The position numbers and the translations under genes are program-made. Of a stretch of 64,000 nt of DNA, positions 3,615 to 38,526 are shown in pieces; position 1 is the first letter of the stretch, and each line of letters opens with the position of its first letter. A model generated the notes under the pieces. That model did not search any database, had not been told where the DNA came from, and saw only the letters and a list, made by a program, of their open reading frames with translations. The DNA comes from Selenomonas ruminantium subsp. ruminantium ATCC 12561. Its GTDB lineage: Bacteria > Bacillota > Negativicutes > Selenomonadales > Selenomonadaceae. The stretch spans positions 1 through 64,000 of the forward strand of contig NZ_AUJE01000014.1 in assembly GCF_000424065.1 (NCBI RefSeq), given 5' to 3'.

Positions 3615-4793
3615 ATGCTAAATAAACTAAAAAATAAATACATCTTTAGAAAGGCTATGCTGTTGTTTGCGAAGATGCTTTCTTTGTTGAATATGATAAT
3701 TCCTAAAAATGAAAGACAGATGCTTTTTTACGATTCGGCTCGTACATTTTTAGATGATAACACAGAAGCATTATATACATATCTTATCAATCATGGATAT
3801 GAAAAAAAATATAAGATGATTTGTTGTGTACCAAATCAGAAAAAGGAATCGCCATTTGCAAATTATAAACCTGTAGGAGCAATTAGAGGTATTTTAGCTT
3901 TTATGACATCAAAGTATGTATTTTTTTCATTTGGTGATTTTAGGATCAAACCAGCAAGAAATCAAGTGGTTGTTAATCAATGGCATGGAATGCCTGTTAA
4001 GAAAATAGGTAAGTATACAAAAGATCCTAAATATCTAGAAGAGAGATTAGACAATTTTACATATTTGCTGGCATCTTCAGAAATGTATAAACCTATTATG
4101 GCAAAAGCTTTTGGGTGCGATTTGGATAAGGTCAAAGTGCTCGGAGCTACAAGAATTGACTATTTTTTTTCGAAAAAAAACACATTGAATAGTTTTAATA
4201 TAATACGGAAAGACTATAATAAATTAGTGATTTGGATGCCTACTTTTCGCAATTCTATAGATGATAGATTTCACGATGGAGGAGAGGATAACGAAACTTT
4301 ATTGCCAATTTTTTATACGTATGATAGCTTGAAGATGTTAGATGAATATTTAAATAAAAAAAACATTCTTATGGTTATAAAAATACATCCAATGGCAAAG
4401 TTTAAAAAGGGAATTTACAAAAGAATAAAAATAATAACTAATGATGAAATAACATCTCAAGGGGTTCGGTTGTATGAGTTTATAAAAGAATTTGATGCCT
4501 TAATTACTGATTATTCATCTATATATAATGAGTTTATTATTTTAAACCGTTATATGGCTTTTACAATTGATGATCAAGAGAATTATTTAAAAAGTAGAGG
4601 TTTTATATTTGATGATATTAATGAGATGCTTCCAGGTCCCAAAATAAGTAATGTAAAGGAATTTTATTCCATGTTGAATGATATACAGAATGATGTCGAT
4701 CTATATAGAGAACATAGAAAACGTGTAAAAAAACTTGTAAATAAGTATGATCGTAACCATTGTGAACGACTAGTTGATTTTCTGGGATTATAG
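3615..4793 (+). CDS. CDP-glycerol glycerophosphotransferase family protein (TagB/TagF-like)
   Basis: Predicted to transfer glycerol phosphate from CDP-glycerol onto the glycan. 392 residues. Family signatures: NQWHGMPVKKIG with the conserved His near residue 120, ASSEMYKP, LGATRIDYFF, WMPTFR, KIHP, and DALITDYSSIYNEF (the DYSS nucleotide-binding motif) followed by a YLKSRGFIFD segment. It is shorter than teichoic acid polymerases, which suits addition of single residues. The glycerol-phosphate activation trio at 7186-9777 in the same locus would supply the donor. AT-rich like its neighbours. Start ATG 3615; upstream sequence gaggtgaaag. Confidence 0.85.
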   Translation: MLNKLKNKYIFRKAMLLFAKMLSLLNMIIPKNERQMLFYDSARTFLDDNTEALYTYLINHGYEKKYKMICCVPNQKKESPFANYKPVGAIRGILAFMTSKYVFFSFGDFRIKPARNQVVVNQWHGMPVKKIGKYTKDPKYLEERLDNFTYLLASSEMYKPIMAKAFGCDLDKVKVLGATRIDYFFSKKNTLNSFNIIRKDYNKLVIWMPTFRNSIDDRFHDGGEDNETLLPIFYTYDSLKMLDEYLNKKNILMVIKIHPMAKFKKGIYKRIKIITNDEITSQGVRLYEFIKEFDALITDYSSIYNEFIILNRYMAFTIDDQENYLKSRGFIFDDINEMLPGPKISNVKEFYSMLNDIQNDVDLYREHRKRVKKLVNKYDRNHCERLVDFLGL

Positions 4794-28794: not shown

Positions 28795-29035
28795 AGTAAA
28801 TAGTAAGGCAATGACGAAGAGGAGTAGGGCTGGACCTGCGGCAGAGAGAGAAAACGGCTGGTGGAAGTTTTCGTGCAGGAGGCGTGAAGGTCGCTTCGGA
28901 GCTTTTGGGCTGAATTTTAGTAGGCGCAGACGTATGGCCGCGTTAAGGCTTTGAGCTGGCAGGGCTTTCCTGCCGGGAACATTGGTGGTACCACGAAAGT
29001 ATGCGCTTTCGTCCTTTGGGGCGAAGGCGCTTTTT
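28795..29035 (+). ncRNA. T-box riboswitch leader, tRNA-Val responsive
   Basis: Senses uncharged tRNA-Val and allows read-through into valS. The 5' side of stem I has caatgacgaagaggagtag (from 28809), the usual T-box opening. A candidate specifier codon GTC (Val) lies at 28890-28892 in gtgaaggtcgc. The T-box itself is tggtggtaccacg at 28983-28995. It is followed by a 12-bp terminator stem, 29003-29014 with 29019-29030, then TTTTT. The T-box and the stem's 5' side are adjacent, as expected for alternative antiterminator and terminator folds. The rest of the 320-nt gap before valS holds only the promoter. Confidence 0.9.
29003..29035 (+). terminator. T-box-controlled terminator before valS
   Basis: Stem of 12 pairs (arms 29003-29014 and 29019-29030, two or three of them G-U in RNA), loop of four, then five T. 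It stops transcription when tRNA-Val is charged. Confidence 0.88.
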
Positions 29036-37810: not shown

Positions 37811-37851
37811 GAGAACATAAAAAGGGGCTGTGAAGTATCCCTTTTATACAG

Positions 37852-37886
37852 AAAGTGCGTTGACATAAATTATCAACGCACTTTTT
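37852..37886 (+). terminator. Rho-independent terminator after pepD
   Basis: Perfect 10-bp stem AGTGCGTTGA (37854-37863) with TCAACGCACT (37873-37882), extendable by two A-T pairs, then a T-run. A weaker hairpin (AAAAGGG with CCCTTTT, about 37820-37843) precedes it. Confidence 0.88.
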
Positions 37887-37939
37887 GCAAATTGCAGTTT
37901 GCCAGTACGTGCTGAAATTTTTTTGTTACAGCTCAGTTT

Positions 37940-38134
37940 GGGCGGAGGTGGTAATACTTTTCGCCGTTGCACGAAATGACCCACAAGCAAAGGAATGCAC
38001 TTTTTAGTTACCTGCGCCGGGCAAGACCGGCGGCGCGTATGTTCAGCTCAATTTCTAGAAACTGTCGTTTGTGGGCCAGTCCTCACTGCGTTCGGACAGT
38101 CGTTCCACAGCGAAAAGCATCACCACCTCCGCCC
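37940..38134 (+). repeat. Structured repeat, copy A
   Basis: Outer arms 37940-37964 and 38110-38134 are complementary at 23 of 25 positions. Inside lie a further pair (CCCACAA near 37980 with TTGTGGG near 38069), a GC-rich hairpin (GCGCC 38014-38018 with GGCGC 38032-38036) and the block CACTGCGTTCGGACAGTCG (38084-38102). This gives a branched fold rather than a simple hairpin. Confidence 0.75.
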
Positions 38135-38242
38135 TAAGTGATGTTCGTATAAAACGGCATTTTCGCGGTGACAAGCAGCAAGTACATCGATGTTCTTGTG
38201 ACGGGAGCAACGAGTTCGTGGCAATAGGCTAATCCGTAACTT

Positions 38243-38436
38243 GGGGCGAACGGGGAGTGCTTTTTCTGTTAGGAGCGACTGCCTGAACGCAGTGAAGGCC
38301 GGCCCCATGTAGAACGAGACTAGGATAATACGCTGAAAGCAGCGCCGTTGGCCTGCCCGGCGCGAGTAACTGGACAGCTATTTTTTCCGAGGGGGTCGTT
38401 TAGCGGGAAACAGAAAAAGTACTCCCCGTTCGCCCC
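38243..38436 (-). repeat. Structured repeat, copy B (inverted)
   Basis: Outer arms 38243-38270 and 38409-38436 are complementary at 27 of 28 positions. Read on the - strand it has the same order as copy A: arm, GC-rich hairpin (38342-38363), CACTGCGTTC block (38276-38294), arm. The arm sequence starts GGGGCGAACGGGGAGT where copy A has GGGCGGAGGTGGT, so arms changed together while staying paired. Confidence 0.75.
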
Positions 38437-38526
38437 TGACTACGTATGAACAAGATATCTTTACCACGAACTGAACTCCCCGACAAACTGCAATTTCACA
38501 GCTTCTTTATATTAGGAGATTCGTAA

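What the first reader, a model, noticed from the sequence alone, without database searches (positions are those of the whole stretch)
37889..38496. Large quasi-palindrome of two inverted structured repeats with arms that changed together
A 700-bp gap holds no credible gene but has nested symmetry. Perfect 13-bp inverted ends bound it, and a 20-bp central palindrome sits almost exactly at its midpoint. Each half carries its own complementary outer arms (23/25 in A, 27/28 in B). The arm sequences differ between halves while pairing within each half is kept, and internal blocks (CACTGCGTTC..CAGTCG and a GC-rich hairpin) are conserved in inverted order. That pattern suggests selection on structure, as RNA or as DNA cruciform. 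Candidates are a new interspersed repeat or MITE-like element inserted twice, or paired structured RNAs. On the left side the pepD terminator seems to split a longer end repeat (GCTGTGAA at 37827-37834 against 38495-38502).
Basis: partly seen in the sequence, partly recalled or inferred. Interest (0 to 1): 0.8.

Follow-up and report, generated by a model that had tools for sequence, protein, structure and literature searches.

The report
Selenomonas double-hairpin repeat with terminator
This stretch is one of about 27 similar non-coding copies of a 600-base element scattered through this Selenomonas genome; it has fixed mirror-image ends and two back-to-back folded cores whose shape has been kept while the letters changed, and no such family appears in the RNA library or the papers searched.

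Summary
Window 37889-38496 is a complete copy of a dispersed repeat. The genome has about 27 loci; a single-contig relative has 31 near-full-length copies; 15 of 22 genomes of the genus carry it. Boundaries are fixed by 13-bp inverted ends. Inside are two homologous ~195-nt cores, head to head and pointing outward (A on -, B on +), with the same branched fold. Covariation is strong: 24 two-sided substitution branches against 1.2 expected and 0-1 in slid controls. Fixed wobbles are G.U on the outward strand in nearly every case. Half the copies carry a terminator hairpin of one family abutting exactly one end, absent from four of the five empty sites first read. Copies cluster by genome, not by locus. 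A covariance model finds the core in other Selenomonadaceae genera, alone or in tandem. No target duplication, no transposase sharing the ends and no Rfam match were found. Best reading: a non-autonomous mobile cassette, homogenised by gene conversion, whose cores fold in neighbouring genes' transcripts. Transcription, mover and benefit are not shown. New variant of a known kind.

The parts
37889..38496 (.). complete 608-bp element
   Evidence: same boundaries in copies across the genome and genus
37889..37901 (+). left terminal inverted repeat AAATTGCAGTTTG
   Evidence: recurs at copy ends genome-wide
38484..38496 (-). right terminal inverted repeat
37940..38135 (-). core A, branched structured core read outward (minus strand)
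   Evidence: covariance-model match to 37940-38135; fold and covariation
38115..38134 (-). core A, P1 5' arm
37940..37959 (-). core A, P1 3' arm
38080..38096 (-). core A, P2 hairpin with tandem G.A internal loop (CCGAACGCAGTGAGG)
38072..38078 (-). core A, P3 5' arm
37977..37983 (-). core A, P3 3' arm
38243..38436 (+). core B, branched structured core read outward (plus strand), homologous to core A
38244..38262 (+). core B, P1 5' arm
38417..38436 (+). core B, P1 3' arm
38282..38298 (+). core B, P2 hairpin
38300..38306 (+). core B, P3 5' arm
38392..38398 (+). core B, P3 3' arm
38179..38198 (.). central palindrome CAAGTACATCGATGTTCTTG, conserved among full-length copies, lost in one one-core copy (L032)
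37852..37884 (.). companion terminator-like hairpin AAAGTGCGTTGAC..TCAACGCACTTT
   Evidence: 29 of 58 copies have one of this type, all abutting the element; motif absent from four genomes of the genus without this core type
37817..37845 (.). small hairpin AAAAGGG-GCTGTGAAGTAT-CCCTTTT upstream of the terminator, recurrent at other copies
   Evidence: TGTGAA upstream of 10 of 29 companion terminators against 2 of 116 control stretches

Best explanation
A non-autonomous mobile cassette. Shown: fixed inverted ends, many dispersed copies, species-specific families, sites that are empty in relatives, one-core and two-core forms, a conserved branched core with compensatory changes, and a one-sided companion terminator. 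Inferred: an unidentified enzyme acts in trans on the inverted ends; copies sit downstream of genes at terminators and bring or acquire their own terminator there; RecA-type gene conversion keeps the copies of one genome alike; and the outward strand of each core folds as RNA within the transcript of a neighbouring gene (no promoter-like site was found in the element), so that a transcript entering from either side meets one sense core before leaving. Most likely local effect, inferred only: the long P1 stem makes a nuclease-processed or stabilised 3' end and insulates neighbouring genes.
For: About 27 loci in the genome; 31 near-full-length copies in G010; fixed ends. Empty sites in relatives: L059, L084, L085, L086, L088 and L224. 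One-core forms that keep one intact core (L032, L033, L034; L228). Covariation: 248 two-sided cells against 79.5 in shuffles (0 of 500) and 8-20 in slid controls; tree-aware 24 branches in 14 pairs against mean 1.2, maximum 4. Fixed wobbles G.U on the outward strand in both cores. Terminator at one end only, 31 of 58 copies against 0 of 116 control stretches; 29 of 58 of one sequence type. Within-genome clustering. Placement: 25 convergent, 31 co-directional, 7 divergent gaps. No sigma-70-like site inside the element. Sense-strand copies between purN and purH in two genera.
Against: No target-site duplication of 3 bp or more. No gene-bearing element with these ends: the two 2.3-kb pairs in G017 are IS1182 insertions with other ends. 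G010, with 31 copies, has no Y1 or IS110-type transposase match. Many positions are shared between species, so movement is slow. Most empty sites differ from filled ones also in their terminator, so no insertion junction is base-exact. Rare one-sided changes are not biased towards G.U (47:35 in A, 50:50 in B), which weakens RNA-level selection on present copies. No expression data.
Confidence: 0.55

Rival explanations
1. A host-functional structured RNA class: each core is an RNA (trans-acting or a 3'-UTR / intercistronic processing element) kept by selection on the host, with dispersal secondary.
For: Strong covariation and fixed outward G.U; few broken cores; core in other genera without the Selenomonas arrangement, and in sense orientation between purN and purH in two genera.
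Against: Copy number varies widely and several species of the genus lack it; no promoter-like site; rare changes not biased towards G.U; genomic neighbourhoods are diverse.
Confidence: 0.22
2. DNA-level structure: the hairpins act as cruciforms or folded single-stranded DNA (site for a recombinase or nucleoid protein), and pairing is kept partly by arm-to-arm templated correction.
For: Equal tolerance of G.T and A.C among rare changes; conserved central palindrome; no target duplication; G018 has the same inverted ends with unrelated hairpin sequences; within-genome homogenisation.
Against: Fixed wobbles are G.U on the outward strand in both cores, with G-C and A-U alternatives; the outward strand folds more stably in 69 and 71 of 73 copies; tandem G.A loop on the outward strand.
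Confidence: 0.15
3. Chance or a degenerate gene: a palindrome-rich gap or a decayed protein or phage piece.
For: Only that short ORFs cross the element.
Against: Dozens of full-length copies with the same ends, covariation, no exact core motif in viral contigs.
Confidence: 0.01

Closest known systems
Pneumococcal BOX and RUP repeats (PMC3049150, read by passages)
   Same: Dispersed, non-coding, highly base-paired, with terminal inverted repeats, modular (BOX), able to affect genes they are co-transcribed with
   Different: Those cause target-site duplications and are AT-rich; here none is seen and GC is 51-53%. Here two complex branched cores stand head to head, and a companion terminator is present
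SPRITE, the pneumococcal terminator-like repeat (PMC3049150)
   Same: A dispersed family of rho-independent-terminator-like hairpins close to gene 3' ends, like the companion terminator
   Different: Here the terminator abuts one end of a 608-bp structured element and was almost never found alone
Bcr1 of the Bacillus cereus group (from memory)
   Same: A structured, transcribed interspersed repeat thought to be a non-autonomous mobile element
   Different: About 155 bp, with target duplications; no inverted double core; unrelated sequence (from memory)
REP/BIME elements with RAYT transposases (from memory; REP size and tags from the abstract of PMC3733652)
   Same: Intergenic palindromes, inverted pairs, near gene ends
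   Different: REPs are 20-40 bp palindromes tagged GTAG or CGTC; G010 with 31 copies has no Y1 transposase match

Membership tests
MITE (miniature inverted-repeat transposable element) | terminal inverted repeats at constant boundaries | tested here: met
   13-bp ends at both boundaries, recurrent
MITE (miniature inverted-repeat transposable element) | non-coding and highly base-paired | tested here: met
MITE (miniature inverted-repeat transposable element) | target-site duplication | tested here: not met
   58 copies: 0-1 matches of 3 bp or more at four offsets, as in shuffled pairings
MITE (miniature inverted-repeat transposable element) | AT-rich relative to the host | tested here: not met
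   GC 51-53% against 45% of the window
MITE (miniature inverted-repeat transposable element) | a transposase gene flanked by the same ends | tested here: inconclusive
   none seen in G000, G010, G017, G018 by exact end matches; the G017 2.3-kb pairs are IS1182 insertions
REP/BIME with RAYT | cognate Y1 transposase in every carrier | tested here: not met
   no PF01797 match in G010, G017, G001, G002, G011, which carry many copies
IS110-type (bridge RNA) passenger | DEDD transposase in every carrier | tested here: not met
   no PF01548 match in G010, G013, G003, G001, G002
Any Rfam 15 RNA family | covariance-model score at or above gathering | tested here: not met
   only a T-box elsewhere in the window
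Structured RNA | covariation above a relatedness-aware null | tested here: met
   24 two-sided substitution branches against maximum 4 in 300 null runs
Structured RNA | transcribed | not testable with these tools
   no expression data; no promoter-like site in the element

The most novel reading that the evidence does not exclude
The ~195-nt core is a new structured RNA class of the Selenomonadaceae, found alone, in tandem arrays and, in Selenomonas, as outward pairs inside an inverted-repeat cassette with its own terminator; the mobile unit places such an RNA at both ends of an intergenic gap so that either neighbouring transcript ends in it.
Probability: 0.3. Interest if true: 0.78.

Novelty: new variant of a known kind. 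Interest (0 to 1): 0.62.

Why it matters
If right, a rumen bacterial genus carries dozens of copies per genome of a large, structurally constrained repeat absent from the RNA library searched, sitting at gene ends together with a family of terminators. It offers a case in which mobile DNA, RNA structure, concerted evolution and terminator turnover can be studied together. In several draft genomes copies lie at contig ends, so the element probably also breaks assemblies.

Tried and rejected
Rfam at gathering and relaxed thresholds: no family. The 2.3-kb inverted-end pairs of G017 as an autonomous parent: they are IS1182 insertions inside the element. Y1 and IS110 transposases as partners: not in all carriers. 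Target duplication: none. Haemophilus-like uptake sequence for the AAAGTGCGTTGAC motif: rejected, because it is nearly confined to terminators beside the element and to chance coding matches. Single exact end matches in G018 at L175, L178 and L179: chance hits in or near ordinary genes. Viral origin: no exact core motif in viral contigs. Literature searches for Selenomonas repeats, MITEs and pSR1 gave nothing relevant; the library holds open-licence papers only.

Full report
Observation. The 13-bp inverted ends at 37889-37901 and 38484-38496 turn out to be the true boundaries of a unit: BLAST of the surrounding 716 bp finds other copies that start and stop at these points. The own genome has about 27 loci, several at contig ends; the single-contig relative G010 has 31 near-full-length copies plus two or three partial ones. 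Fifteen of 22 genomes of the genus match at DNA level and none of 39 outside it. An exact motif scan of 84,980 species genomes returned only Selenomonas records among those listed, and viral contigs gave none.

Anatomy. Seventy-three full-length copies were aligned. The halves are homologous: core A read on the minus strand and core B read on the plus strand share one fold, a long P1, a P2 hairpin with a tandem G.A loop, and a P3 that closes a multiloop with a GC-rich hairpin. The cores stand head to head around a conserved 20-bp palindrome and point outward. One-core elements with both ends exist (L032-L034; 316 bp between flanks at L228), so the core is the unit that is kept whole.

Structure is selected. 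On 54 cores from several species, 18 of 34 pairs have changes on both sides, 248 cells against 79.5 in shuffles, and 8-20 when partners are slid. Because the copies are related, I counted two-sided changes on a tree: 24 branches in 14 pairs against a null mean of 1.2 and maximum of 4, and 0-1 for slid partners. Gene conversion between copies violates a strict tree, so this is an approximation. Strand: at nearly all positions where a helix holds a fixed non-Watson-Crick pair it is G.U on the outward strand, with G-C and A-U as alternatives (A 31/199, 34/196, 76/173; B 54/215, 97/191, 12/242, 14/240); A 84/165 is a possible exception. Some of these are homologous between A and B, so the independent cases are about five. 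Against this, rare one-sided changes split 47 G.U to 35 A.C in A and 50 to 50 in B, which is not what strong current RNA-level selection on each copy would give.

Companion terminator. In 31 of 58 copies a strict intrinsic-terminator hairpin lies within 70 bp of one end, never of both, against 0 of 116 control stretches. With a pattern made for the type CGYTGAC..GTCARCG, 29 of 58 copies have one, all abutting the element. The motif AAAGTSCGYTGA occurs 20 times in G000 and 23 times in G010, mostly within about 130 bp of an element, and not at all in four genomes of the genus that lack this core type in DNA searches. The remaining matches that I read were chance coding matches except one solo terminator. 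Sites empty in relatives carry unrelated terminators in four of the first five cases read. So the terminator came with the element or replaced the old one at the same event.

Movement and homogenisation. At the pepD / B12-radical-SAM gap the element is present in eight or more genomes and in plasmid record pSR1, in both orientations, and absent in G004. Further filled/empty pairs are L012/L084, L009/L085, L015/L086, L018/L088 and L112/L224. Yet copies resemble others of their genome about as much as or more than their positional orthologues, and they cluster by genome: concerted evolution, or repeated replacement. No target duplication is visible. No element with a transposase and these ends was found; G010 carries neither a Y1 nor an IS110 transposase match.

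Wider family. A covariance model of the core matches 21 of 301 Negativicutes genomes, including other genera of the family. There the cores occur singly, as inverted pairs, or in direct tandem, for example three in a row between purN and purH in G031 and one at the same gap in G007, all in the sense of the operon. The weaker matches (about 25-32 bits, G007 included) should be treated with care, although the shared purN-purH position supports the G007 one. G018 has the same inverted ends around two different hairpin halves, and in G015 a type-1 core lies beside a G018-like hairpin, so ends and cores are partly independent modules.

Mechanism. I favour a non-autonomous mobile cassette whose cores fold within neighbouring transcripts. 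Shown: dispersal, fixed ends, structure, terminator association, homogenisation. Inferred: the mover, transcription, and the effect on 3' ends. Placement agrees with life at gene 3' ends: of 63 copies 25 lie in convergent gaps, 31 in co-directional and 7 in divergent ones, by a crude ORF caller. No promoter-like site was found in the element.

Known relatives. The nearest kinds are BOX, RUP and SPRITE repeats (PMC3049150), Bcr1 and REP/BIME (memory). Two MITE features listed in that paper, target duplication and AT-richness, were tested and not met, so I say it works like a MITE without filing it as one. Novelty: new variant of a known kind.

Noticed in passing
L035 (NC_002139, pSR1) 1-265 and 4534-4692: The S. 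ruminantium 'plasmid' pSR1 consists of the radical-SAM and HAMP genes that follow the element in the window, and its record begins at its only HindIII site, which lies inside a repeat core; it may be a chromosomal HindIII fragment or a circle formed between two copies.
   Followed up: partly
L172, L173, L176, L177, L182 (G018): A second element type with the same inverted ends, terminators beside some copies, and two inverted hairpin halves of unrelated sequence.
   Followed up: partly
L166:824-2535 and L167:927-2638 (G017): An identical IS1182-family insertion sequence sits inside two copies of the element at two different points.
   Followed up: partly
L026 (G000 C23): One copy of the own genome groups with copies of G003/G013 rather than its own, suggesting horizontal transfer of that locus.
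   Followed up: no
L059, L088, L224, L226, L182, L172: Another dispersed hairpin family (AAGCCTTCCCC..GGGGAAGGCTT, sometimes with a longer GGATGAGG-containing insert) occupies some of the same gene-end sites.
   Followed up: no
G010 C1: Elements look denser near the two ends of the single contig (25 of 33 in about half of its length), perhaps origin-proximal; not tested formally.
   Followed up: no
window 28802-29019: A T-box leader, the only Rfam match of the window.
   Followed up: no
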